Below the pieces are notes generated by a model. That model searched no databases and was not told the origin of the DNA. It saw only the letters and a program-made list of their open reading frames with translations. From Sebaldella sp. (GTDB lineage: Bacteria > Fusobacteriota > Fusobacteriia > Fusobacteriales > Leptotrichiaceae), in assembly GCA_018058425.1 (NCBI GenBank), contig JAGOZX010000001.1:1832-65831 (forward strand): a DNA stretch of 64,000 nt. The letters run 5' to 3'. The translations under genes and the position numbers were made by a program. Shown piece after piece: positions 1 to 9,720 of the stretch. The first letter of the stretch is position 1; each line of letters begins with the position of its first letter.

Positions 1-368
1 TTCCGAGTTTTCTCGGATTCGTTTCCGAGTTTCACTCCTAAGTCGGATTCAAATCCGAGTTTTTTATTCCATTCCTTACCCTTTTCAGTTAACCTTATTA
101 CATCTTTTTTTCCAACTTTTTTATATTCAATTAAATCTTTTTCTTGTAAATCTTTTAAATTTCTGTACACCGTATCATCTTTTACATAAAATAAAGGAAG
201 TTCTTTAAGTACAAGATTTCTCGATACATGATAAAAAACTTCATTATCTATTATGTATGTATCTGCCCATGATGAAGCTTGATTCAGCAGATCAAATAAT
301 GCTCCTTGATTTACATTTAATCCCCATTCTAAACATTTCACATTATTTATGTTGGTAAAATATCTCAT
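1..368 (-). CDS. Phage replication initiator, N-terminal part (runs off window)
   Basis: This leftward reading frame starts at an ATG at 368, about 10 bases after an AAGGGAAG ribosome binding site, and is open to the window edge (122 codons, C-terminus missing). The N-terminal ~100 residues (MRYFTNINNVKCLEWG at the start, then a VYRNLKDLQEKDLIEYK segment) look like a winged-helix domain of the kind found in phage replisome organisers. After residue ~100 it enters a charged 10-residue repeat (KLGFESDLGV, KLGNESEKTR). Such repeats occur in the linker of DnaD-like phage replication proteins and often overlap the phage origin. The place at the far end of the leftward early operon fits. The family is inferred from pattern only. 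Confidence 0.6.
   Translation of the reverse strand, partial: MRYFTNINNVKCLEWGLNVNQGALFDLLNQASSWADTYIIDNEVFYHVSRNLVLKELPLFYVKDDTVYRNLKDLQEKDLIEYKKVGKKDVIRLTEKGKEWNKKLGFESDLGVKLGNESEKTR
13..62. repeat. Iteron-like 30-bp-period repeat inside the replication gene
   Basis: Two near-identical 20-mers (13-32 and 43-62) both start TCGGATTC and end TCCGAGTTT, spaced 30 bases apart. Each contains TCGGA and its complement TCCGA, and a further partial unit (TTCCGAGTTT) lies at 1-10. The period equals 10 codons, so the repeat also shows as peptide repeats. It may serve as initiator binding sites; the array continues beyond the window. Confidence 0.5.
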
Positions 369-462
369 TTTAAAAACTTCCCTTCATATTTTTTTCTATA
401 GTATTCGTAAGTATTAGGATTTTTTACTTAAATTACTCCTACTTTAATTTTATTTTTTATTG

Positions 463-471
463 TGGTATAAT
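463..471 (+). promoter_or_regulatory. Extended -10 promoter of candidate sRNA 1
   Basis: TATAAT at 466-471 is preceded by TG one base upstream (TGGTATAAT). No good -35 is seen (TTTAAT at 443-448). The 14-mer TGTGGTATAATCTC recurs exactly at the isolated gene promoter near 3982-3995. Confidence 0.45.
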
Positions 472-477
472 CTCAAC

Positions 478-552
478 AACAAATTATTTTGTTATTTGAA
501 ACTTTCCAACTTTCAAATTCAGACCTCATAAATATATGGGGTCTTTTATTTT
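478..552 (+). ncRNA. Candidate prophage small RNA 1
   Basis: The predicted transcript starts just after the TATAAT at 466-471. It holds an 8-bp hairpin (ATTTGAAA 494-501 with TTTCAAAT 511-518, loop 502-510) and then an intrinsic terminator (AGACCTCAT 521-529 with ATGGGGTCT 536-544, T-rich tail 544-552). No open reading frame with a ribosome binding site fits inside. It lies between the replication gene and the next leftward gene, on the opposite strand. It could be merely a terminator for rightward read-through, but the promoter immediately upstream argues for a short RNA. Confidence 0.4.
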
Positions 553-563
553 TACTTTTTTTA

Positions 564-572
564 TGGTATAAT
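564..572 (+). promoter_or_regulatory. Extended -10 promoter of candidate sRNA 2
   Basis: TGGTATAAT, with TATAAT at 567-572, lies 20 bases after the terminator of the first unit. The surrounding 13-mer TATGGTATAATTT is identical to that at the ybjQ promoter near 11223-11235, so this is a form used by chromosomal genes too. No clear -35 is seen. Confidence 0.45.
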
Positions 573-578
573 TTAAGA

Positions 579-660
579 AAATTGAAACTAGTTTCTTCAC
601 TACGACCAATAGACAAGAAACTAGTTTGTATCTTTAAATGACCTCTTCAGGGGTCTTTTT
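579..660 (+). ncRNA. Candidate prophage small RNA 2
   Basis: A perfect 13-bp inverted repeat (AAACTAGTTTCTT at 586-598 with AAGAAACTAGTTT at 615-628, given to the nearest base) encloses a loop of about 17 bases. The AAACTAGTTT part of each arm is itself palindromic. It is followed by a terminator hairpin, GACCTC 640-645 and GGGGTC 650-655, with a run of T. The same order (TGGTATAAT, hairpin, GACCTC/GGGGTC terminator) occurs in the unit just upstream, so the two look duplicated. The 3' end overlaps the 3' end of the gene at 634-1167 on the other strand. Confidence 0.45.
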
Positions 661-1167
661 TATTCTTTCAACATTATACAAAAATTCACTTATTGTTAGC
701 ATTACTTCAAATGTTAATTCTAAAATAAAAACCTCTCTATTTGCTTGAAGATCATCTAATTCGAAATATGCTGTTTTTTCTTTTGGATTCAATTTCTCTT
801 CAAATTCCTTAAGTAACATTCGTTTCTCCGCTATCAATAAGTTGTATTCTTTGTTTCCATCTCTAAAATCTCCTGTAATTACTTCTGAATGATCTTTTAA
901 AACCGTTATCATTTCATCTTTATTTTCTTCATCAAGTCCATAAATTTCTTTGAATATATTTGAACTTCCTATAAAAAAATCTAGTAATTTATCTTTTACC
1001 AATCCTTGAATTTCCATGTCTAAATCGTTTATTTCAATTATTCCTTTGTCTTTTAAAATTTCTATTTTCTCTAATATTTTAGATCTAAAAATAATAATTT
1101 GTTCATTTTTTCCATAAGCTATTTCAAAAGCATCATCAAATAATTTAAGTAAAAATTCTTTTTCCAT
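634..1167 (-). CDS. Hypothetical phage protein, 177 aa
   Basis: The start at 1167 has GGAGG seven bases upstream. The protein is acidic and mostly helical, rich in Glu, Lys and Leu, with no signal peptide or membrane segment. It follows the 169-residue protein upstream within two codons of space, so both belong to the leftward prophage early operon. I do not recognise a family. Its last codons overlap the candidate + strand sRNA terminator at 640-655, which is unusual: the DNA there must serve both as coding sequence and as terminator stem. Confidence 0.65.
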   Translation of the reverse strand: MEKEFLLKLFDDAFEIAYGKNEQIIIFRSKILEKIEILKDKGIIEINDLDMEIQGLVKDKLLDFFIGSSNIFKEIYGLDEENKDEMITVLKDHSEVITGDFRDGNKEYNLLIAEKRMLLKEFEEKLNPKEKTAYFELDDLQANREVFILELTFEVMLTISEFLYNVERIKKTPEEVI

Positions 1168-1168
1168 T

Positions 1169-1678
1169 TCAAACCTCCATATTTATTTTAGTTGTTTTAA
1201 GTTCCTCTCCTGTTAAAAGCATTGCTTTAAATAATAAATTATCTCTCAAACCATCTATTTCAGCCGATAAACCATTATGAATAAAAAAATCTTTTTTACA
1301 TTTTGCTTTTATTTCATTTTCAAATTCAATTATTTTTCGTAAGATATCTGAAAACTTACCTCTTTTAGGTGTTTCATTTGTTGTTTCAAAGAAAACATCA
1401 TCAAGATTTTTTATATTTTTTTCTTTCCATTCTTCAGTTAAATAATTAATATATATGAAATTTTCTATATTTTTATGAAAAAACTCTTTTTTCTTTCCCA
1501 TATAAAACTTATCTAAATCACTACACATTTTTTCAAGTTGTTTAAGTTCTGTCTCATCGATTAATAATTTTTTACCAGCTTCTTTTTTTTGGATTTCCAG
1601 TTCTTTTAAACCCTCGCTTTCATCGCATAGTAATCTAAAATTCTTATCCAATAGATCTTCGGCTTCACTTCTATTCAT
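1169..1678 (-). CDS. Hypothetical phage protein, 169 aa
   Basis: The ATG at 1678 is preferred over an in-frame TTG two codons earlier because GGGAGG lies seven bases before it. The protein is lysine- and glutamate-rich; residues ~20-55 look like a coiled coil, and there is no membrane segment. It lies immediately downstream of the antirepressor gene, whose stop sits inside this gene's ribosome binding region, so translation may be coupled. The family is not recognised. Context suggests an early phage function such as DNA metabolism or host takeover, but this is inference only. Confidence 0.65.
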   Translation of the reverse strand: MNRSEAEDLLDKNFRLLCDESEGLKELEIQKKEAGKKLLIDETELKQLEKMCSDLDKFYMGKKKEFFHKNIENFIYINYLTEEWKEKNIKNLDDVFFETTNETPKRGKFSDILRKIIEFENEIKAKCKKDFFIHNGLSAEIDGLRDNLLFKAMLLTGEELKTTKINMEV

Positions 1679-1680
1679 TC

Positions 1681-2370
1681 TCAAGCCTCCCTATTATTTC
1701 TTATTTCTGCTTTTTCAATCCAAGCTTTTACATAATTCACTGCATCTTCAAAATCTACTGTTTTTATGTCTCTATAACTTGGTACTCCAAAAGTATTTCT
1801 TAACTCTCTATGTAATGCACTAAACAAGACTTTGTTCTCTAGCCCTGTTTGTTCTGACCTTTCATACACTCTTCTCGATACTAAATTTCTAATCTTATTT
1901 TGTTGGCCAGAATCTATTGTCATTTGATTATTAAGTTTATCTTTTATTTCTGCTATATCACCTTTAACTACTTTTGTTTCAGTGGCTAGTGTTATTATCA
2001 TGTCTTCTATTGTCATTGGTGCTACAGGTCCATTTTTTTGTATACTGTAATTCCCTGTTTTCATAATTCTAGGAATCACTTCGTCAAATATCCAACTTTC
2101 AAATTCTTCTGCTCCTGGTATATGTGATTTCGTTAATAACCTTATTACATTTCCTTCATTAATATATTTTTTCTGTTTTGTCCCACTTGGATAGCTGACT
2201 GAACGAATCGTGCACCCAGCTTCTTTACAATGATCCCTTATTGCTTTTTGAGGATTTTTGTATCCTAATATTTCTGCTACTTCTGTTGCTGGAAACCAAA
2301 CCTTTCCTTTTTCATCTACATAGACTTCTAATTCTCCAAATTTCTCGTTTTTCACTACTAATTCATTCAT
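1681..2370 (-). CDS. Phage antirepressor, BRO-N plus ORF6C
   Basis: The N-terminal ~110 residues match the BRO-N fold of phage antirepressors: a VWFPATEVAEILGYKNP segment at ~25-40 and an ESWIFDEVIPRI segment near 92-103. The C-terminal ~95 residues (from about NQMTIDSGQQNKIRNLV to YVKAWIEKAE) match the ORF6C domain. Proteins with this pair bind DNA and can counter the CI-like repressor during induction. The AGGAGG ribosome binding site is well spaced from the ATG at 2370. It overlaps the upstream 85-residue gene by four bases. It is intact, so it may let this prophage switch to lytic growth. Confidence 0.85.
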   Translation of the reverse strand: MNELVVKNEKFGELEVYVDEKGKVWFPATEVAEILGYKNPQKAIRDHCKEAGCTIRSVSYPSGTKQKKYINEGNVIRLLTKSHIPGAEEFESWIFDEVIPRIMKTGNYSIQKNGPVAPMTIEDMIITLATETKVVKGDIAEIKDKLNNQMTIDSGQQNKIRNLVSRRVYERSEQTGLENKVLFSALHRELRNTFGVPSYRDIKTVDFEDAVNYVKAWIEKAEIRNNREA

Positions 2371-2624
2371 ATTCTTTCCTCCTGATTTATTTTAATATTT
2401 TCTTTTTTCTGAACCTCTTCTAAAAGTTTATCTGTATTTGTTTTAACTTTTTTCCACTCTTCTTTTATCTCTGCTAATTCTCTTTTCAAATCTTCATAAC
2501 CTATTATTCTATATTCCTTTGTTTCTAAATGACGTTTCAATTCATCTTGTAGTGCTTTTATATATTTTTCTTGTAATTTTATTTCTTCCAATAGTTTTTT
2601 ACGATTATAAAACCATTTCAGCAT
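2367..2624 (-). CDS. Hypothetical coiled-coil phage protein, 85 aa
   Basis: The start at 2624 has GGAGGG upstream. Almost the whole length is charged heptad-like helix (for example LQEKYIKALQDELKRHL), so a coiled-coil dimer is likely. The N-terminus MLKWFYNRKK is basic and aromatic. It overlaps the antirepressor by four bases (stop/start overlap), implying coupled translation. Function is unknown; a partner of the antirepressor is possible but not shown. Confidence 0.6.
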   Translation of the reverse strand: MLKWFYNRKKLLEEIKLQEKYIKALQDELKRHLETKEYRIIGYEDLKRELAEIKEEWKKVKTNTDKLLEEVQKKENIKINQEERI

Positions 2625-2636
2625 TCCCTTGCCCTC

Positions 2637-3044
2637 CTAGTTATATTTATTATGATCTGTAATTACATAATTTTCCCCAACTTTTCCTATTAACTCCATG
2701 CCATTTTCTTTTAAAACTTCTTCTCTAAATTTTTCAGCTTTCAATTTTATTAAATGCCACAATAATTTATTATTTTTTTCAAGTTTATCAAATTCTTCTT
2801 CATTATCCTTAAAAGTTGGATAATCAATTCCATATACCAAACAATGTATAAATCCCAAAGCTTCTATTGAAACTTCTAAATAATCTCTTTCTGTATAATC
2901 TTTTGACATTGATTTTGGTGGTTCTTTTTTCGTAAAAGCTACAAATAGTCCCATAATTTTTTCATGCATTTCTCCTATACTTAAATCTTTCCACTTTTCA
3001 TAGAACATCTCAAAATGCTCTGATTCAGTTCTTTCTTCTGACAT
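2637..3044 (-). CDS. Hypothetical phage protein, 135 aa
   Basis: GGAGGAG lies three bases ahead of the ATG at 3044. It is an acidic, soluble, mainly helical protein (for example DYTERDYLEVSIEALGFIHCLVYG mid-protein, split here by family-unknown loops). No domain is recognised. It is one of the chain of closely spaced small early genes between the Cro-like regulator and the antirepressor. Confidence 0.6.
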   Translation of the reverse strand: MSEERTESEHFEMFYEKWKDLSIGEMHEKIMGLFVAFTKKEPPKSMSKDYTERDYLEVSIEALGFIHCLVYGIDYPTFKDNEEEFDKLEKNNKLLWHLIKLKAEKFREEVLKENGMELIGKVGENYVITDHNKYN

Positions 3045-3052
3045 TTCTCCTC

Positions 3053-3260
3053 CTAATTCGTTACTATTCTACTTTCTACTTTTGCCTTTCCTAATTCCAC
3101 TTCTCTTAATATTTTCTGAGTATCGTCCATCATTTTGTATAATACATTTTTTTCTGTTGCTGATAAAAACCCTGTATTTATTAGTTCATCTAATTTTTCA
3201 ATTGTATTCTCCATTTGAAAATACAGCTTCTTTTTCTGCTGTAGTCTTTATCCTTTCCAT
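3053..3260 (-). pseudogene. Small phage gene with apparent one-base frameshift
   Basis: An ATG at 3260 with a good AGGTGA site opens a frame that stops after 20 codons. A second frame offset by one base runs on from 3214 for 53 codons to a TAG at 3053-3055 but has no ribosome binding site of its own. Dropping one T from the TTTT run before 3216 joins them into a 68-residue protein (…KEAVF-Q-MENTIEKLDEL…). So this is a frameshifted gene, a sequencing error, or a slippage site. The joined product is a small helical acidic protein of unknown role. Confidence 0.5.
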
Positions 3261-3262
3261 TC

Positions 3263-3409
3263 TTACTCACCTACTTTAAGTTCAATATTATATTTTCTTC
3301 CAAATTCTTTATTTTTCTTTATTCTCAACCTTTTATTTCTCATTTTTTTAGTATCCAAAATACACAAGATACAAAAAAATATTACTGCCCAAATTAATGA
3401 ATTCATCAT
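3263..3409 (-). CDS. Small membrane protein, 48 aa
   Basis: A short frame starts at ATG 3409 (a second ATG follows directly) with GGGAGA 6-8 bases upstream. Residues ~4-18 are hydrophobic (LIWAVIFFCILCIL) and the rest is strongly basic (KKMRNKRLRIKKNK), giving a single-pass protein with a cytoplasmic basic tail by the positive-inside rule. It ends three bases before the next start, as expected in this operon. Small basic single-pass phage proteins have many roles, so none is assigned. Confidence 0.55.
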   Translation of the reverse strand: MMNSLIWAVIFFCILCILDTKKMRNKRLRIKKNKEFGRKYNIELKVGE

Positions 3410-3446
3410 TTATATTCTCCCATCTATCTTTTAGTTTTTCTTATTT

Positions 3447-3641
3447 TTATTCTGCTTCTCCCATATATTCCACAAATTTCTTTCTGCTTATATGATAGGA
3501 CCATCTATCTGGATTTGTTTGTGTCAATACTGCATGTCCGAAAGGTAATGTTTTCTGTCTTAGTCCCATTCTCACAAACATTACATCTTTCCCCATTATC
3601 TTTGCTGCATCTTCACACTTCATGTTTTTTGGTTTCTCCAT
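3447..3641 (-). CDS. Small phage DNA-binding-like protein, 64 aa
   Basis: AGGTGA precedes the ATG at 3641. The sequence (KCEDAAKIMGKDVMFVRMGL at residues ~8-27, then PFGHAV and WSYHISRKKFVEYMG) has the pattern of small helix-turn-helix phage proteins related to excisionase/MerR-type N-terminal domains that are common in Firmicutes prophages. It probably binds DNA, in excision or early regulation. No single residue proves this; the assignment rests on the overall pattern. Confidence 0.55.
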   Translation of the reverse strand: MEKPKNMKCEDAAKIMGKDVMFVRMGLRQKTLPFGHAVLTQTNPDRWSYHISRKKFVEYMGEAE

Positions 3642-3744
3642 TTATTATTCACCTACTTCTATATCTAGTAATTTAAAAGTTGTTAATTTATACTCTGGAC
3701 TTTATTTATCAGTTGAAAAGTGTGCCATTCTTTCTTCCTTCTAT

Positions 3745-3930
3745 TTACTTTTTTACATGTACGCCCTTTTTTAATATTCCAAAATGTTTATATACTCCTA
3801 ATACATTTTCCATTATTATCTCTAATTCATGCTGTGTGACTTCGTTCTCTTCAAAAATAGCTAGTATTTTATCTGTTATCTCACATCTAACTTCTGCTTT
3901 TTCTTTATCCATTTTCTCTAAATTATTCAT
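3745..3930 (-). CDS. Hypothetical phage protein, 61 aa
   Basis: GGAGGTGA lies upstream of the ATG at 3930. The protein is a short charged helical one (MNNLEKMDKEKAEVRCE at the start, basic at the end). No family is recognised. It is the last leftward gene before the inserted rightward gene at 4025-4390 breaks the operon, so its transcription must either read across that gene or begin nearby. Confidence 0.5.
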   Translation of the reverse strand: MNNLEKMDKEKAEVRCEITDKILAIFEENEVTQHELEIIMENVLGVYKHFGILKKGVHVKK

Positions 3931-3983
3931 TCTTAGTCACCTCCTATTTTTCTTATTATATTATTTAAAATACTATTAATTTG

Positions 3984-3992
3984 TGGTATAAT
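3984..3992 (+). promoter_or_regulatory. Extended -10 promoter of the isolated + strand gene
   Basis: TGGTATAAT (TATAAT 3987-3992) lies ~32 bases before the ATG at 4025, with AAAGGAGG between. The 14-mer TGTGGTATAATCTC is identical to the candidate sRNA 1 promoter. Confidence 0.5.
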
Positions 3993-4024
3993 CTCCTTAT
4001 TATATTTATGAAAGGAGGTTTTCT

Positions 4025-4390
4025 ATGGTTCCTTATTTATTTTTTTTAACTCATGATGGTTTTGAAGTATACCTATTAAGAGCCACAAATAAACGTGAAA
4101 AACTTTTTTTACATTTTAAAAATGACGATTTCCGAAATGTAACTAGAGCCGAGGCTAAATTTCAAAACGACGATACTCCTGAAAATATTCAATTTAATGG
4201 AATAACTTTTAAAAAGCGACCACCTCAACCTATTAAGCATGAAGATAAACGCTGGAAACATGACGATGACTATGTTATCATTGATATTTTCAAAAATGAT
4301 AAAAATGTTAAAGAACTTAAACTATCTGCAGTTAATTTAGGTAACTTGAATAAAATTATGGATAATTTTGATGAATTTTTGCAAAAGTAG
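4025..4390 (+). CDS. Isolated rightward prophage gene (moron-like), 121 aa
   Basis: This gene reads against the surrounding leftward operon and has its own extended -10 promoter, a strong AAAGGAGG site and its own terminator at 4384-4407. That autonomy is typical of 'moron' cargo expressed from the dormant prophage. The product is a soluble, charged, mixed alpha/beta protein starting MVPYLFFLTHDGFEVYLL, with no signal peptide or membrane span. I do not recognise the family. Lysogenic conversion, phage exclusion or defence evasion are possible roles by position only. Confidence 0.7.
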   Translation: MVPYLFFLTHDGFEVYLLRATNKREKLFLHFKNDDFRNVTRAEAKFQNDDTPENIQFNGITFKKRPPQPIKHEDKRWKHDDDYVIIDIFKNDKNVKELKLSAVNLGNLNKIMDNFDEFLQK

Positions 4391-4407
4391 CTTTGGCTAC
4401 TTTTTTT
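4384..4407 (+). terminator. Intrinsic terminator of the isolated + strand gene
   Basis: AAAGTAGC (4384-4391) pairs with GCTACTTT (4396-4403) over a four-base loop, followed by T at 4401-4407. The stop codon of the gene at 4025-4390 lies inside the stem. Confidence 0.8.
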
Positions 4408-4648
4408 AGTCTGCACAAAATAGTTCTATAAACTCCGCGCCTAACTCTTCTTTTTCTATATCTCCACCATACGCAAAAACTTTAAAAGCTTCTTTGGATT
4501 TTTCAGCAAATTCATTAGCCATTTCCTCTATATTTGATTTTTTGACTTTTGGAAATTCTACTAGTACAACAAATCCATTAACAGCCCAAGTCTTTTCATT
4601 TTTTGGATATATCTGTACTTTTGCTAACACTGTTATTTCTTTGTCCAT
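4406..4648 (-). CDS. Hypothetical phage protein, 80 aa
   Basis: AGAGGTGA precedes the ATG at 4648. It is a small alpha/beta protein (EITVLAKVQIYP strand, VNGFVVLVEFP strand, then a helix EEMANEFAEKSKEAFKVFA). It is not recognised. It ends at the T-run of the oppositely directed terminator at 4384-4407, so the two convergent genes share that boundary. Confidence 0.55.
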   Translation of the reverse strand: MDKEITVLAKVQIYPKNEKTWAVNGFVVLVEFPKVKKSNIEEMANEFAEKSKEAFKVFAYGGDIEKEELGAEFIELFCAD

Positions 4649-4677
4649 TCTTAATCACCTCTTTTTCTTATTTTTCA

Positions 4678-4851
4678 TTACTGAGTAAATTCTCTTTCAA
4701 GTACCTTATTTAATTCTTCTAAGTCAGCTAGTTTTATTTTGCTGAATTTTCTGTTATATTCCATATCAACAAATGCTTTTATTTTCTCCCACTCGCATTT
4801 TGTCAAGCCATCTAGAGATTCTGTTATTTTACTTATTTTTTCTTTATCCAT
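4678..4851 (-). CDS. Hypothetical phage protein, 57 aa
   Basis: A short frame runs from ATG 4851 to a TAA at 4678-4680. It encodes a compact helical protein (MDKEKISKITESLDGLTKCE, then WEKIKAFVDMEYNRKF and LADLEELNKVLEREF). An AAGG motif lies about 12 bases upstream, which is a modest ribosome binding site. It sits between an operator-like site at 4897-4910 and the next small gene in the same direction. Function is unknown. Confidence 0.5.
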   Translation of the reverse strand: MDKEKISKITESLDGLTKCEWEKIKAFVDMEYNRKFSKIKLADLEELNKVLEREFTQ

Positions 4852-4896
4852 ACTCTTAATTACCTTGCTTTATATTAATTTTTTAGTCTCACTTTA

Positions 4897-4910
4897 TAGC
4901 ATTTATGCTA
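4897..4910. promoter_or_regulatory. Operator-like palindrome downstream of the Cro-like gene
   Basis: TAGCATTTATGCTA has six-base perfect arms around TT. The core GCATTTATGC is the same as in the control region at 5125-5134. It lies just after the Cro-like gene stop and before the next leftward gene, so the repressor or Cro-like protein may also control the downstream operon. Confidence 0.5.
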
Positions 4911-4913
4911 CAG

Positions 4914-5108
4914 TTAGCTAAAAAAAATTTTGCAAGGATCAGATATACCTAAAAGCTTCGATATTGTATCAGCCTCAACTATTGAAAATTCTGATTTACC
5001 ATTCAATTTTCTATTTAATGTTTGAGGAGTTAATCCCATAGATTTAGCCAGTTCTAATTGAGATATGCTTTTCTCCACAATAAGTCCTTTTAATTTTTTC
5101 AAATTCAT
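4914..5108 (-). CDS. Cro-like XRE-family regulator, 64 aa
   Basis: This is a single helix-turn-helix domain of the XRE/Cro family: residues ~14-40 (SISQLELAKSMGLTPQTLNR) form the DNA-binding helices. The ATG at 5108 follows AAAGGAGG with good spacing. It is transcribed divergently from the CI-type repressor gene across a region with repeated GCAT(N)2ATGC-like operators, the classical layout of a lysis-lysogeny switch. By analogy it represses the repressor promoter and starts the leftward early operon. Length is typical of Cro-size proteins. Confidence 0.8.
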   Translation of the reverse strand: MNLKKLKGLIVEKSISQLELAKSMGLTPQTLNRKLNGKSEFSIVEADTISKLLGISDPCKIFFS

Positions 5109-5124
5109 CTCAATACCTCCTTTC

Positions 5125-5224
5125 GCATTTATGCTACAAAATAGTTATACTATATTTTTATGAAAATGTCAACGCATAAATGCGATTTTTTTTTAATACT
5201 TTAAAATATTTGTTGCATTATTGC
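5125..5224. promoter_or_regulatory. Divergent CI/Cro control region with three operators
   Basis: Three related 10-bp sites lie between the divergent start codons: GCATTTATGC (5125-5134), GCATAAATGC (5174-5183) and a diverged GCATTATTGC (5215-5224). Centre-to-centre distances are 49 and 41 bp. The first lies in the leftward Cro leader, the last just before the CI-type gene. A fourth copy is at 4899-4908. They are the expected binding sites for the two regulators on either side. Confidence 0.65.
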
Positions 5225-5273
5225 GCAAAATAAGATATATTATAAATATATTTTTAACAGAAAGGAATTAAAA

Positions 5274-5948
5274 ATGAACCAAGTGAAAGATGTAGCTGAT
5301 CGAATCAAACAACGAAGACTTGAACTAGGACTTACTTATAGAGATTTAGAAGAGGCAACTGGTATAACGGCCTCCACATTACAAAGATATGAAAGCGGTT
5401 TTATTAGTAAACTTCCAATTGATAAATTATACACTATCGCAAAAGGTTTAAGAGTAGACCCTGGATATCTTATGGGGTGGACAGACAATGAAAAACCAAA
5501 ACTTAAAACGCCCACGTCTAATGTAGGAGAAATAGTAAAAACACGCAGACTGCCCATGTACGGGAAAGCAAGCGCGGGAAACGGGTATATAAATTTAACC
5601 GACGAAGTAGGTTATTATGATGTCCCTGTTCAATACTGCACTAATCCAGATGTATATACTGTTAAAATATCAGGTGAAAGTATGACAGGTTTAGATAAGG
5701 CAATACATGATGGTTCTGTGGCTGTTGTCGATCCTCAACTATGTTCAACTCCAGAAGCATTAGATGGTAAAGTATGCATCTTTACATATAATGATGAAAC
5801 ATATATAAAACAGCTCGCTATAGATAAACAGGGAATCATAAGATTAAGATCATTTAATCCTAATTATGATGACATTATAGTGCTTAAACCTGAGCTTTTA
5901 AAATGTGAAGGTAGGGTTATTGTAACTTTTACTGAAAGTAATTGGTAA
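5274..5948 (+). CDS. CI-type prophage repressor with S24 self-cleavage domain
   Basis: Residues 1-70 are an XRE helix-turn-helix domain (LTYRDLEEATGITASTLQRY at 20-39). Residues ~95-224 are an S24/LexA-like peptidase domain. The cleavage site Ala101-Gly102, the nucleophile Ser136 (in SGESMTG) and the general base Lys179 (in YIKQL) are all present, so RecA-stimulated self-cleavage, and hence SOS induction, is expected. The gene has an AAAGGAA site and diverges from the Cro-like gene. Length (224) is usual for this family. It probably holds the lytic operon silent in the lysogen. Confidence 0.92.
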   Translation: MNQVKDVADRIKQRRLELGLTYRDLEEATGITASTLQRYESGFISKLPIDKLYTIAKGLRVDPGYLMGWTDNEKPKLKTPTSNVGEIVKTRRLPMYGKASAGNGYINLTDEVGYYDVPVQYCTNPDVYTVKISGESMTGLDKAIHDGSVAVVDPQLCSTPEALDGKVCIFTYNDETYIKQLAIDKQGIIRLRSFNPNYDDIIVLKPELLKCEGRVIVTFTESNW

Positions 5949-5962
5949 TAAGGAGATTAACT

Positions 5963-6181
5963 ATGAATGAGATTGATAAAATTATACTCTCAGATCCAAG
6001 AATCAAGGATTTGAACAAAAAAGAGCTAACAGAATATGAGATCTTTACAAAAAATGACATAGGGTATTTAATAGAGGAAGGTGTTTCTGAACCTGATATT
6101 ATACTATTTGTTAAATCTCTAATAGAGGTCTTTTTTACAATCATTATAGATAAAAGACGCAAAAAAATTAGAAAAATATAA
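5963..6181 (+). CDS. Small prophage protein A of a related pair, 72 aa
   Basis: The ATG at 5963 is chosen over an earlier in-frame TTG because AAGGAGAT lies just before it. The product has an N-terminal block LSDPRIKDLNKKELTEYE and a hydrophobic stretch near residues 50-65 (IILFVKSLIEVFFTIII) followed by a basic tail. It begins 15 bases after the repressor stop, so it is probably cotranscribed with the repressor in the lysogen. The N-terminal block resembles that of the protein at 6307-6492. Function is unknown; a superinfection or lysogeny role is possible by position. Confidence 0.6.
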   Translation: MNEIDKIILSDPRIKDLNKKELTEYEIFTKNDIGYLIEEGVSEPDIILFVKSLIEVFFTIIIDKRRKKIRKI

Positions 6182-6306
6182 TTTTTTAAATGACATAATG
6201 GCACATTGGAGCAACAATATTCACAATATAACTAAGATAAAAAGTATTATTAGAAAGATTGAAAGAAGTTAAATTTAGTAATAAATACTAATTTGGAGGT
6301 TCTAAC

Positions 6307-6492
6307 ATGATTAATTATAGTAGCTTAGCTTATAGTGATCCCAGAGTTGAAAAATTAAATAAAACAGAGAAATTAAAATATGTCAAATATGTAATTAAGT
6401 ATGAAAAAGTTTTAAAAAAGATGGCCGTTTTAGAAGAATATAAGAAATACCTTTTAACAATCTCAATTGATAAGTTTTTTGATTCAATATAA
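6307..6492 (+). CDS. Small prophage protein B of a related pair, 61 aa
   Basis: GGAGG lies eight bases before the ATG at 6307. It starts MINYSSLAYSDPRVEKLNKTEK, sharing the SDPR-x3-LNK-x-E pattern with the protein at 5963-6181, but lacks the hydrophobic C-terminal segment and is basic and helical throughout. No family is recognised. Together with its neighbour it lies between repressor and integrase, the part of a prophage usually expressed in lysogeny. Confidence 0.55.
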   Translation: MINYSSLAYSDPRVEKLNKTEKLKYVKYVIKYEKVLKKMAVLEEYKKYLLTISIDKFFDSI

Positions 6493-6496
6493 TTAA

Positions 6497-6568
6497 AAAG
6501 TCTCTCCCGACCAAGAAAGAGACTTTAAATGTGATATAACTACCACCTAGACAGTGGAATTATATCAC
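6497..6568 (+). terminator. Two hairpins before the integrase
   Basis: The first hairpin pairs AAAGTCTCT (6497-6505) with AGAGACTTT (6518-6526). The second pairs GTGATATAA (6531-6539) with TTATATCAC (6560-6568) and has an inner CCAC/GTGG pair, with TTTT just after (6571-6574). They may end the repressor transcript and set integrase expression apart; the first lacks a proper T-run. Confidence 0.5.
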
Positions 6569-6602
6569 ACTTTTACTAAAAATAAAAGGATGTGATTTTT
6601 TT

Positions 6603-7637
6603 ATGCGTAACCCCAATGGATACGGATCTGTTTTTAAATTATCTGGAAATCGAAGAAAACCTTATGCTGTCAGAATAACCCAAAAATGGACTGATGAGGG
6701 AAAGCGGATCTACAAATACTTAAGCTACCATGTTACAAGAAAAGAAGCTATGCAAGCTTTAGCCTCATACAATGCTAATCCATATGATGTTGATGAAAAT
6801 AATATTACCTTTAAAGCGATGTATGAAAATTGGAGTGATAGACACTTCAAAAACATTACTAAAAACACCATCAAAGGTTATGAGACATGCTTTGGTTACT
6901 GTAAACCTATATACAACATAAAAATAAAAGATATTAAAATTGTACATTTGCAAAATTTAATTGATAATCTTAATAAAAATCATGGAACATTAAAATTGAT
7001 GAGAAGTCTATTAAACCAAATTTTTAAATATGCTATGCAACTTGATATTATCCAAAAAGATTACAGTAAGTATCTAAAAATAGGGAAACATATTGTTATA
7101 AAGAAAAAAACTATATTTTCAGATGATGAGATTAGTAGGCTATGGGATAATTTAGATTATCACAAATACATTGATACAATCCTAATTATGGTGTATACAG
7201 GAATGCGGATAGGTGAACTTCTTAATTTAAAAAAAGAAGATATTGATTTAATTGAACAGACTATTATTGTTACTGACAGTAAAACACAGGCTGGACAAAA
7301 TAGAATCATACCAATTCACCCTAGAATAAAAGAGTTAATTCAAGGTAGATATGATTATTCTGAAGTTGACTATCTAATAAGCAATATCAGAAATAACGGC
7401 TATATTAATTATAGTTACTACAATACTAAATTATTTAATCCTATTATGATTTTTCTCAATATGGAACATACACCACATGACTGCAGACATACTTTTGCAA
7501 CAAGATTAAATGATGCAGGTGGAAATGCCACAGCTATAAAGAAAATAATAGGACATGAATCTTTTGCTCTAACTGAAAAGGTTTACACTCATAAAAAGGT
7601 AGGCGAATTGAGAAAAGCTATAGAACTAATTAATTAA
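6603..7637 (+). CDS. Prophage tyrosine integrase
   Basis: This is a tyrosine recombinase that inserts and excises the prophage. Residues ~1-60 resemble an arm-type DNA-binding domain, ~70-160 the core-binding SAM-like domain and ~170-344 the catalytic domain. The catalytic set is complete: Arg202 (TGMRIGEL), Lys227, His292 and Arg295 (HDCRHTFATR), His318 (GHES) and nucleophile Tyr328 (VYTHK). Length (344) is slightly below typical phage integrases (~370-390). The ribosome binding site is weakly spaced (AAAGGATG, then a T-run). It ends near the prophage/host junction, as expected. Confidence 0.93.
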   Translation: MRNPNGYGSVFKLSGNRRKPYAVRITQKWTDEGKRIYKYLSYHVTRKEAMQALASYNANPYDVDENNITFKAMYENWSDRHFKNITKNTIKGYETCFGYCKPIYNIKIKDIKIVHLQNLIDNLNKNHGTLKLMRSLLNQIFKYAMQLDIIQKDYSKYLKIGKHIVIKKKTIFSDDEISRLWDNLDYHKYIDTILIMVYTGMRIGELLNLKKEDIDLIEQTIIVTDSKTQAGQNRIIPIHPRIKELIQGRYDYSEVDYLISNIRNNGYINYSYYNTKLFNPIMIFLNMEHTPHDCRHTFATRLNDAGGNATAIKKIIGHESFALTEKVYTHKKVGELRKAIELIN

Positions 7638-7638
7638 T

Positions 7639-7676
7639 AAAATAGTAGTTTTAAAAGTATAACTACTATTTTATAT
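7639..7676 (+). terminator. Terminator after the integrase
   Basis: AAAATAGTAGTT (7639-7650) pairs perfectly with AACTACTATTTT (7661-7672) over a ten-base loop. The T-tail is short. Confidence 0.7.
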
Positions 7677-7800
7677 AACTAGATTTTGTATATCATTTGT
7701 ATACCACATACTTAATTTTATATAATTCTAAGAAATTTTATAGCACTTCAAAGTATTATTATCATTGATATTATCGAGTTCTAGAAGCCTAAAATTATTT
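7677..7800. other. Probable prophage attachment-site region
   Basis: The integrase terminator is followed within ~60 bases by the broken 3' end of a HAD phosphatase gene. The recombined attachment site should lie where phosphatase-like coding sequence stops resembling its family, roughly 7750-7800. The core cannot be defined here because the other prophage end is outside the window. No tRNA is present. Confidence 0.4.
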
Positions 7801-8132
7801 TTATAAGTAATAAATTTCAAGTCTATATCTTTAGTTTCTTCATATATTTCCAATAGTTCTTCTCTTGTAAGACTTTCCCTTGATAAAACCTTATTAGTTT
7901 TCATATCTAGTATTTCGCCACCATTATACCCTGCCACATAACCATTATATTTATCCAACTCTAATTCTTTAGCTATTTTCATCATTGCTTCTGTGGGTCT
8001 TCCACTTGCAAGAACAAATGTCACTCCTTGTTTTTGTAATTCCATAATTGCTTCTTTATTAGCCTTTGTTATTTCATGATTATCATTTAAAAGAGTATCA
8101 TCTACATCTGTTACAAACATTTTATACTTCAT
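7728..8132 (-). pseudogene. Truncated Cof-type HAD phosphatase
   Basis: The ATG at 8132 follows GGAGGAATT and is preferred over an upstream in-frame start. The product begins like Cof/YidA-type HAD hydrolases: motif I DVDDT at residues 9-13 with Asp9 and Asp11, and motif II LASGR at 41-45. Family members run to ~265-275 residues, but this one stops at 134. The lysine of motif III and the GDxxND of motif IV, needed for catalysis, are absent. The last ~20 codons look unlike the family and are probably prophage DNA. Insertion of the prophage is the simplest cause. The truncated protein is unlikely to be active. Confidence 0.75.
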
Positions 8133-8230
8133 AATTCCTCCAATGTAATAATTTTTTCTACATTCTAATTCTACCATATTTACTTTATTTTATCATCCTC
8201 TATAATAACTTTTCATATTAAATTTTTCAT

Positions 8231-8286: not shown

Positions 8287-9438
8287 TTATAAGTACTTTT
8301 TTATCTCTTCCACTTTATTAGTTCTTTCCCAAGGTAAATCTATATCTGTTCTTCCTATATGCCCAAAAGCTGCTAAGTCTTGATATTTAAATTTACCACT
8401 TCTTAGTTCTAATTCCTGCTCTATTCCTCTTGGTGTTAGATTAAATACTTTTGATACTATTTCTGAAATTTTTTCTTCTGATATACTTGATGTTCCAAAT
8501 GTATCTACTTTAATAGAAGTTGGTTCTATTACACCTATAGCATAAGATAATTGAACTTCACACTTATCAGCTATTCCTGCTGCAACTATATTTTTAGCAA
8601 CCCATCTTGCAGCATATGCAGCCGATCTATCTACTTTTGAAGGATCTTTTCCTGAAAATGCTCCTCCTCCATGTCTAAAGAAACCACCATAAGTATCTAC
8701 AATTATTTTTCTTCCAGTTAATCCTGTATCTCCATTAGGTCCTCCAATTACAAATCTTCCTGTTGGATTTATATGAAATTTTTTCACTTTTGCAGGATCA
8801 AGATTATATTTTTCTAAAACTGGTATTATAACCTTTTCTTTTAATTCTTTTTGAATTACTTCCTGTGTTACATCTTCATTATGCTGCACAGATAATACCA
8901 CAGTGTCTACATACTCCACTTTTTCTCCCTTTTCATCATAAGCCAGAGTAATTTGTGCTTTAGCATCTGGCCTTGCCCATGAAAGCTCGCCACTTCTTGT
9001 AAGTATAGTTAGACGATTTATAATTTCTCTTGCTAGCGTTAAGGCTAACGGCATTAATTCTGGCGTTTCTTTAACTGCTCCACCAAACATTATACCTTGA
9101 TCTCCTGCACCCCCTGTATCGACTCCCATAGCTATATCTGGAGACTGTGAGTGAATAACATTCATTACTCCACAATCAGAATCAAAGCCCATCCCTTGCT
9201 TATAACCAATTTCACTTATTTTCTCCCTTACAATTTTTTGTATATCAATGTAAGTATTTGTGGTAATTTCTCCTCCAACTAATACAAGACCTGTAGTTGC
9301 AAAAACTTCACAAGCTACTCTTGATTGTGGATCATCTATTAAACATGCATCTAATATGGCATCTGATATTTGGTCACAGATTTTATCTGGATGACCTGGT
9401 GATACAAACTCTGATGTAAAAAACAAATTTTTTGACAT
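8287..9438 (-). CDS. metK: S-adenosylmethionine synthetase
   Basis: MetK makes S-adenosylmethionine from ATP and methionine in the cytoplasm. The 383-residue length and family signatures fit: [13 protein letters not shown] at 15-27 (His16 and Asp18 in the ATP site), [12 protein letters not shown] at 110-121, and the glycine-rich GGGAFSGKD region near 250. The start at 9438 follows AGGAGG. It stands alone, with its own terminator, and is preceded by a SAM-I riboswitch, so its product feeds back on its own transcription. Confidence 0.98.
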
Positions 9439-9597: not shown

Positions 9598-9720
9598 ATC
9601 TTCAATCCTGAAAGCAAAATTGAAGATACACCATTTCATCTTTCAGGAATTAGCACCACATACATAGTATAGGTTGCTGGAACTTCATAGAGCCTGTCTC
9701 TCGGTTCCTCTTGATGATAT
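9598..9720 (-). promoter_or_regulatory. SAM-I (S-box) riboswitch with terminator
   Basis: Read on the minus strand, the aptamer spans 9720-9633 with the conserved S-box elements in order: CATCAAGAGG, a GAGACAGGC-like P2 region, the AGTTCCAGCAACC segment, GGTGCTAATTCCTG and the closing GATGA. P1 pairs TCATC with GATGA. It is followed by a terminator, ATCTTCAAT (9627-9619) with ATTGAAGAT (9606-9598) and six T. An eight-base antiterminator is visible: CCTGAAAG at the aptamer 3' side (9647-9640) is complementary to CTTTCAGG in the terminator loop (9614-9607). SAM binding should therefore switch metK off. Confidence 0.95.

What the first reader, a model, noticed from the sequence alone, without database searches (positions are those of the whole stretch)
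463..660. Two tandem promoter-hairpin-terminator units: duplicated prophage small RNAs
Two consecutive units share the order TGGTATAAT, stem-loop, then a GACCTC/GGGGTC terminator with T-run. They lie on the strand opposite to the early operon. The second has a perfect 13-bp stem built from the palindrome AAACTAGTTT, and its end overlaps the 3' end of the gene at 634-1167. Short RNAs encoded next to a replication gene can control copy number, superinfection or host mRNAs. Nothing coding explains them.
Basis: partly seen in the sequence, partly recalled or inferred. Interest (0 to 1): 0.55.

Follow-up and report, generated by a model that had tools for sequence, protein, structure and literature searches.

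The report
Tandem antisense RNA genes beside phage origin
A prophage in a Sebaldella-like bacterium carries a small cluster of predicted short RNA genes facing the wrong way just in front of its replication-initiator gene, in the same place as the OOP RNA of phage lambda, and related prophages keep the same arrangement, so they probably help control phage replication.

Summary
On the + strand, against the early operon, lie two promoter-hairpin-terminator units: U1 (TGGTATAAT 463-471, terminator 521-544) and U2 (TGGTATAAT 564-572, perfect 13-bp stem 585-597/615-627, terminator 640-655 overlapping gene 634-1167). A scan for extended -10 plus terminator found 3 such units in 64 kb and none in 200 Markov sequences of that size. 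U2 is conserved at the same place in a Sebaldella termitidis prophage (57 of 66 aligned bases, one compensatory pair, conserved loop), where there are three units. 'Duplicated' is not supported: the U1 and U2 bodies are unrelated. The gene on the other side, starting at 368, is an O-position replication initiator. Six of 8 other loci with this initiator (all six in the genus of Leptotrichia wadei and L. hofstadii) carry one such opposite-strand unit there, beside differing upstream genes. Best reading: OOP-type antisense RNAs and convergent promoters that limit or time initiator expression and origin use. A possible trans role: the U2 loop can pair with the 5' end of another antisense RNA upstream of int. 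No transcript has been shown.

The parts
463..471 (+). U1 extended -10 promoter TGGTATAAT
478..549 (+). predicted U1 RNA, about 72 nt: 5' hairpin 478-493, stem-loop 494-518 (loop 502-510), terminator 521-544
   Evidence: start site assumed 7 nt after the -10
564..572 (+). U2 extended -10 promoter TGGTATAAT, conserved in S. termitidis unit C
579..660 (+). predicted U2 RNA, about 82 nt: stem 585-597/615-627, loop 598-614, terminator 640-655
634..1167 (-). early-operon gene whose 3' end (634-660) is overlapped by the U2 terminator; all-helical protein without known family
1..368 (-). 5' part of the O-position replication initiator gene (continues into an assembly gap left of the window)
1..62 (.). 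TCGGATT...CCGAG repeats inside the initiator gene, likely origin iterons
   Evidence: similar repeats by eye in L183, L185, L186, L195
6490..6567 (-). minus-strand unit upstream of int: TGATATAAT 6567-6559, RNA from about 6552, terminator 6526-6497; its 5' end can pair with the U2 loop (possible partner, a lead only)

Best explanation
The feature is a cluster of OOP-type small-RNA genes. Two extended -10 promoters fire against the early operon in the gap between its gene 634-1167 and the O-position replication initiator (start at 368), and each makes a self-terminating RNA of roughly 70-80 nt. In cis these RNAs are fully complementary to the intercistronic stretch of the early mRNA, and the promoters collide with polymerase coming from the early promoter; the likely result is mRNA cleavage by RNase III and/or less transcription into the initiator gene and origin, so that initiator and primase are limited or timed, as OOP/pO does in lambda. 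U2 has a conserved stem presenting a conserved loop (CUACG, CCAAUAGA) and so may also act in trans. Shown: anatomy, position, conservation of U2, recurrence of the unit beside initiators. Inferred: transcription, cleavage, interference, any effect on replication.
For: Promoter and terminator pairing far above chance. U2 promoter plus hairpin 57 of 66 aligned bases identical to S. termitidis unit C, against 375 of 500 for the neighbouring coding DNA and 116 of 182 for the U1 region; in the stem 11 of 12 pairs unchanged, 1 changed on both sides, 0 broken (two sequences only). Same order in both prophages: gene-634 homologue, units, initiator, primase/helicase. Initiator: the first 122 aa are 63% identical to a Mannheimia phage gene lying immediately before replication protein P; the S. 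termitidis one hits RepA_N (2e-16) and DnaD-like loader families, with repeats inside the gene. Recurrence: of 8 other loci with the window-type initiator at E < 1e-9, 6 (L183-L186, L191, L192) have exactly one opposite-strand TGNTATAAT-terminator unit just upstream of the initiator start. They come from 4 genomes of one genus, two of them named by plasmid records as L. wadei and L. hofstadii; L191 is nearly a copy of L185, and L192 resembles L183. Base rate of the same scan: 1 in 28 chance loci (83 kb), 0 in 11 host loci (40 kb). In the four loci whose ORFs I read (L183-L186), the upstream genes fall into 3 unrelated families, none related to gene 634, so the shared neighbour is the initiator. 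RNase III present in 4 of 4 genus genomes, Hfq in 0 of 4.
Against: No transcript data. Only two homologues of U2, so one compensatory change is weak (266 of 500 column shuffles do as well). U1 is not conserved, and S. termitidis has unrelated units A and B. Two of 8 initiator loci (L187, L188) lack a strict unit, and of 5 phage-type initiator loci none has one at this place (one strict unit elsewhere, in L194; looser candidates by eye in L195 and L196). The S. termitidis initiator is of another family than the window's. Overlap with the upstream gene is only the terminator, 27 bases, against 52 in lambda (PMC5869508). The -35 boxes are poor.
Confidence: 0.6

Rival explanations
1. Mainly trans-acting: the U2 loop base-pairs with another RNA, the best candidate being the minus-strand RNA predicted upstream of int, linking replication and integration control (an RNA sponge or kissing pair).
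For: In prophage positions 1-8200, both strands, the best non-self partner of the U2 loop is the 5' end of that RNA (-15.4 kcal/mol; next unrelated site -12.0); in S. termitidis the homologous site is second non-self (-14.9 against -16.9) with 10 contiguous pairs. Own-prophage pairs (-15.4, -14.4) beat crossed pairs (-12.1, -10.7). The unit is conserved upstream of int in three prophages; the one without a U2-like RNA (L159) lacks the complementary 5' end.
Against: Found after the fact; shuffle controls are moderate: 38 and 17 of 2000 (window), 36 and 57 of 2000 (L158). In the whole 64-kb window the site ranks fourth non-self. Co-folding of the full RNAs does not favour the complex. The paired bases are not the same in the two prophages, and the window site lies partly in a hairpin.
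Confidence: 0.2
2. Only transcription matters: the promoters act by convergent transcription near the origin (as proposed for lambda pO), and the RNA products themselves are by-products.
For: Promoters recur at the same place while RNA bodies differ between Sebaldella and Leptotrichia loci and between units; in lambda the pO promoter lowers pR transcription and its loss impairs replication (PMC3985674, abstract and introduction).
Against: U2/C keeps its stem and loop better than the neighbouring coding DNA, which a by-product would not need.
Confidence: 0.25
3. RNA anti-CRISPR (CRISPR-repeat mimic) or type III antitoxin RNA.
For: Phage-borne short structured RNAs in tandem; cas1 present in the window's genome.
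Against: No resemblance of the five units to the repeat beside cas1 on G000:C90; S. termitidis, which has the homologue, has no cas1 match; the units are not repeats of one another and the adjacent genes hit no toxin family.
Confidence: 0.03
4. No RNA genes: chance promoter-like sites next to terminators that merely shield operons from read-through.
For: No expression data; weak -35 boxes.
Against: No such pairs in 200 Markov sequences of 64 kb; promoter, stem and loop conserved across species; recurrence beside initiators.
Confidence: 0.08

Closest known systems
Phage lambda OOP RNA / pO-oop-tO
   Same: Short self-terminating RNA (77 nt in lambda, PMC3349717 passage) made against the early operon from a promoter in front of the O-position initiator, terminator running into the 3' end of the preceding gene, iterons inside the initiator gene (PMC3985674 introduction).
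   Different: Two or three promoters in tandem here, one in lambda; overlapped gene is not cII and the overlap is 27, not 52, bases (PMC5869508 passage); promoters are of extended -10 type; host genus without detectable Hfq; sequence relation to lambda OOP not tested directly.
OOP-BTP1 of Salmonella prophage BTP1 (PMC7067206, passages)
   Same: RNA at the OOP position of a temperate phage, antisense to the 3' end of the preceding gene.
   Different: Single RNA in a lambdoid phage of an enteric host; no sequence relation examined.
STnc6030 of prophage BTP1 (PMC7067206, passages)
   Same: Prophage-encoded antisense RNA; causes superinfection exclusion.
   Different: 786 nt, antisense to late structural genes, not at the replication region.

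Membership tests
OOP-type RNA | Promoter opposite the early operon, between an early gene and the O-position initiator | tested here: met
OOP-type RNA | Short RNA ended by its own intrinsic terminator | tested here: met
   predicted 72 and 82 nt, terminators at 521-544 and 640-655; transcription itself not tested
OOP-type RNA | RNA 3' end overlaps the 3' end of the preceding early gene | tested here: met
   U2 only, 27 bases; U1 does not reach the gene; in L183-L186 the T-run ends at or within about 25 bases of the stop
OOP-type RNA | The overlapped gene is cII | tested here: not met
   no family hit; all-helical model (pLDDT 92) without fold match at E <= 0.001
OOP-type RNA | Origin iterons inside the initiator gene | tested here: inconclusive
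   repeats present in the window and L158 initiator genes; origin function not tested, and the window gene runs into a gap
OOP-type RNA | RNase III-dependent cleavage of the early mRNA | not testable with these tools
   RNase III gene present in 4 of 4 genus genomes
OOP-type RNA | Common descent with lambda OOP by sequence | not tested
   no lambda sequence was compared; no Rfam family reached its gathering score here
RNA anti-CRISPR | Mimics a CRISPR repeat of the host (feature recalled) | tested here: not met
   scores against the G000:C90 repeat within shuffles for all five units
Type III toxin-antitoxin | Tandem RNA repeats next to an endoribonuclease toxin gene (feature recalled) | tested here: not met
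   bodies unrelated; no toxin family hit in the adjacent genes

The most novel reading that the evidence does not exclude
Prophages of Leptotrichiaceae carry a two-RNA circuit: an OOP-position RNA (U2/C) whose loop pairs with an antisense RNA made upstream of integrase, so that firing at the replication origin and integration control are coupled by RNA-RNA pairing without Hfq, while the origin-side locus gains and loses further RNA units between phages.
Probability: 0.17. Interest if true: 0.68.

Novelty: new variant of a known kind. Interest (0 to 1): 0.45.

Why it matters
OOP is known to me only from lambdoid phages of enteric bacteria. The same layout in prophages of another phylum, beside unrelated upstream genes, suggests that its general job concerns the initiator and origin rather than cII; that old question (antisense to cII, or pO activity at the origin) becomes testable by comparison. 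The tandem, fast-changing units also give a small natural series of phage RNA genes in a group without detectable Hfq. My paper searches (open-access library only) listed no paper whose title or abstract start describes such RNAs in Sebaldella or Leptotrichia.

Tried and rejected
Protein 634-1167 and the primase/helicase as baits in viral contigs: no relatives. Stem pattern: 0 in viral contigs, 2 hits in genome contigs, both without the loop and promoter. DNA search of phage and plasmid records: only short chance matches. Covariance model on 100 relatives: the two true copies plus weak hits that I read as chance A+T-rich hairpins (G093, G064, G034, and the reverse strand of U2 itself). Rfam at permissive threshold: only weak matches below gathering scores, to families of other organisms. 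Initiator bait in viral contigs: 1 relative, without a unit. The two distant S. termitidis relatives of protein 634 (L159, L160) have only 80 and 46 bases before the next ORF, so no such cluster fits there. U1, A and B single-stranded parts gave no partner worth reporting. Replication-primer role: for lambda considered unlikely (PMC3985674). A host partner (start of the pyruvate-kinase-like gene, 13024) was seen at chance level only. svsR of an E. coli prophage (PMC12803456, passages) lies at the end of cI and is not the same kind.

MAFFT misaligned loop and terminator of U2 against C, so counts rest on a shorter alignment and a local alignment.

Full report
What is there. The window lies at G000:C63:1832-65831; the contig begins 1,831 bases to the left. 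Window 1-7637 is the early end of a prophage: integrase 6603-7637 (+), CI-like repressor 5274-5948 (+), Cro-like 4914-5108 (-), then an operon on the minus strand through an antirepressor (1681-2370) and genes 1169-1684 and 634-1167 to a gene starting at 368. In the 265 bases between 368 and 634, on the + strand, lie U1 and U2: extended -10 TGGTATAAT at 463-471 and 564-572, hairpins, and intrinsic terminators at 521-544 and 640-655. With a start 7 nt after the -10 the RNAs would be about 72 and 82 nt.

Chance. Terminator-like hairpins: 4 in the first 1300 bases against 0.2 expected. A strict rule (TGNTATAAT followed within 30-100 nt by a terminator on the same strand) finds 3 units in the window (471 +, 572 +, 6559 -) and 4 in 18 kb of the S. 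termitidis prophage, against 0 in 200 Markov sequences of 64 kb. With the terminator rule relaxed to 3 G-C pairs the counts are 4 and 5, and 1 in 28 chance loci.

The homologue. Of 100 genomes searched with the region, the one strong match outside the window's own genome is G003 (E 3e-13); the rest are short A+T-rich matches. G003 is S. termitidis ATCC 33386: 3,001 of 3,001 bases of its third contig match NC_013519.1. Its prophage (L158) has the same gene order and three units in the same gap: A (-10 at 5910-5918), B (5992-6000), C (6079-6087). C is the homologue of U2: local score 46 against 13 in shuffles, 0 of 1000 as high; U1 against A or B is no better than chance. Promoter and hairpin of U2 and C share 57 of 66 aligned bases, the overlapped gene 375 of 500, the U1 region 116 of 182. 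In the common stem 11 of 12 pairs are identical and one is changed on both sides (U-A to C-G), none broken; with two sequences this is weak by itself (266 of 500 column shuffles do as well). The loop keeps CUACG and CCAAUAGA. The terminator sits at the stop codon of the overlapped gene in both, and the C-terminal KKTPEE is shared, as expected if those codons double as a terminator.

The neighbour. The N-terminal 122 aa of the gene at 1-368 are 63% identical to a Mannheimia phage 587AP2 protein encoded immediately before replication protein P, that is, at the position of lambda O. The S. termitidis counterpart is a different initiator (RepA_N 2e-16, DnaD-like loader 7e-23). Both are followed by a primase/helicase (70% identical over the part held). 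Repeats lie inside the initiator genes; the window's TCGGATT...CCGAG type recurs by eye in Leptotrichia and Mannheimia loci.

Recurrence. I then searched 100 relatives with the initiator N-terminus. Eight loci outside the window's own at E < 1e-9 were read: 6 have one opposite-strand TGNTATAAT-terminator unit between the initiator start and the preceding gene (L183, L184, L185, L186, L191, L192), 2 do not (L187, L188). The six come from four genomes of one genus; plasmid records name two of these as L. wadei (identical stretch) and L. hofstadii (record of the same length, 16,635). L191 is nearly a copy of L185 and L192 resembles L183. In L183-L186, whose ORFs I listed, the T-run ends at or within about 25 bases of the stop of the preceding gene, and those genes fall into three families unrelated to each other and to gene 634. 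Two weaker hits (L189, L190) were dropped from this count; L189 has a unit, but about 860 bases upstream of the initiator-like ORF. Of five phage-type initiator loci (L181, L193-L196) none has a strict unit at this place.

Reading. A promoter and short self-terminating RNA opposite the early operon, right in front of an O-position initiator, is the layout of lambda pO-oop-tO. In lambda OOP is antisense to cII, the RNase III cut lies just past cII (PMC5869508, passages), pO interferes with pR and affects replication (PMC3985674, abstract and introduction), and oop transcription with iterons in cis is needed for a replicative inhibition (PMC3349717, passages). Here the overlapped protein does not look like CII: an all-helical model (pLDDT 92) without fold match. 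Since the overlapped gene changes from locus to locus and an initiator is always on the other side, I think the conserved job is limiting or timing initiator expression and origin use, by antisense pairing, by promoter collision, or both. This is inference; nothing here measures RNA.

A trans lead. A third kind of unit lies on the minus strand upstream of int (TGATATAAT 6567-6559; terminator 6526-6497) and is conserved upstream of int in three prophages, with three compensatory pairs in the terminator between the window and L159 (48 of 500 shuffles as good). Its predicted 5' end is the best non-self partner of the U2 loop within the prophage part of the window (-15.4 kcal/mol), and the second best for C in S. 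termitidis. Shuffle controls are only moderate (17 to 57 of 2000), in the whole window the site ranks fourth, and co-folding does not favour the complex. I keep it as a lead.

Other readings. CRISPR-repeat mimicry and type III antitoxin do not fit. No Hfq match in 4 of 4 genus genomes, while 5 of 14 control genomes rang; F. nucleatum is reported to lack it (PMC11005410, passage).

Verdict. It is best read as a tandem, Fusobacteriota version of an OOP-type locus.

Noticed in passing
window 6490-6567 (-); L158 14912-14992 (-); L159 1658-1737 (+): A conserved short antisense RNA unit sits just upstream of integrase in three prophages; its promoter lies in an inverted repeat TGATATAAT...ATTATATCA that in L158 also holds a + strand -10; compensatory changes in the terminator stem.
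   Followed up: partly
window 1-62; L158 5414-5511: Repeats inside the replication initiator genes that look like origin iterons; the TCGGATT...CCGAG type seems shared with Leptotrichia and Mannheimia phage loci.
   Followed up: partly
window 3984-4404 (+); L158 9905-10437 (+): A lone + strand gene with its own extended -10 promoter (in the window also a terminator at 4383-4404) inside the early region; looks like a lysogenic accessory gene. The window protein (4025-4390) has no Pfam or PHROG hit.
   Followed up: no
L189 422-477 (-), S. termitidis C1 near 1.351 Mb: Another TGNTATAAT unit with a GACCTC-TTCG-GAGGTC terminator, some 860 bases before an initiator-like ORF in a further S. termitidis replication region.
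   Followed up: no
window 9633-9720 (-): SAM riboswitch (RF00162, 73 bits) upstream of an S-adenosylmethionine synthetase-like gene at 8287-9438.
   Followed up: no
L002 1732-1831 (contig C63, just left of the window): A run of 100 N; the apparent single ORF from initiator to primase/helicase across it is an assembly effect, since S. termitidis has two separate genes there.
   Followed up: partly
L179 9-256 (G000:C90): Short CRISPR-like array (4 copies of a repeat, spacing 65-66) on the contig with cas1.
   Followed up: partly
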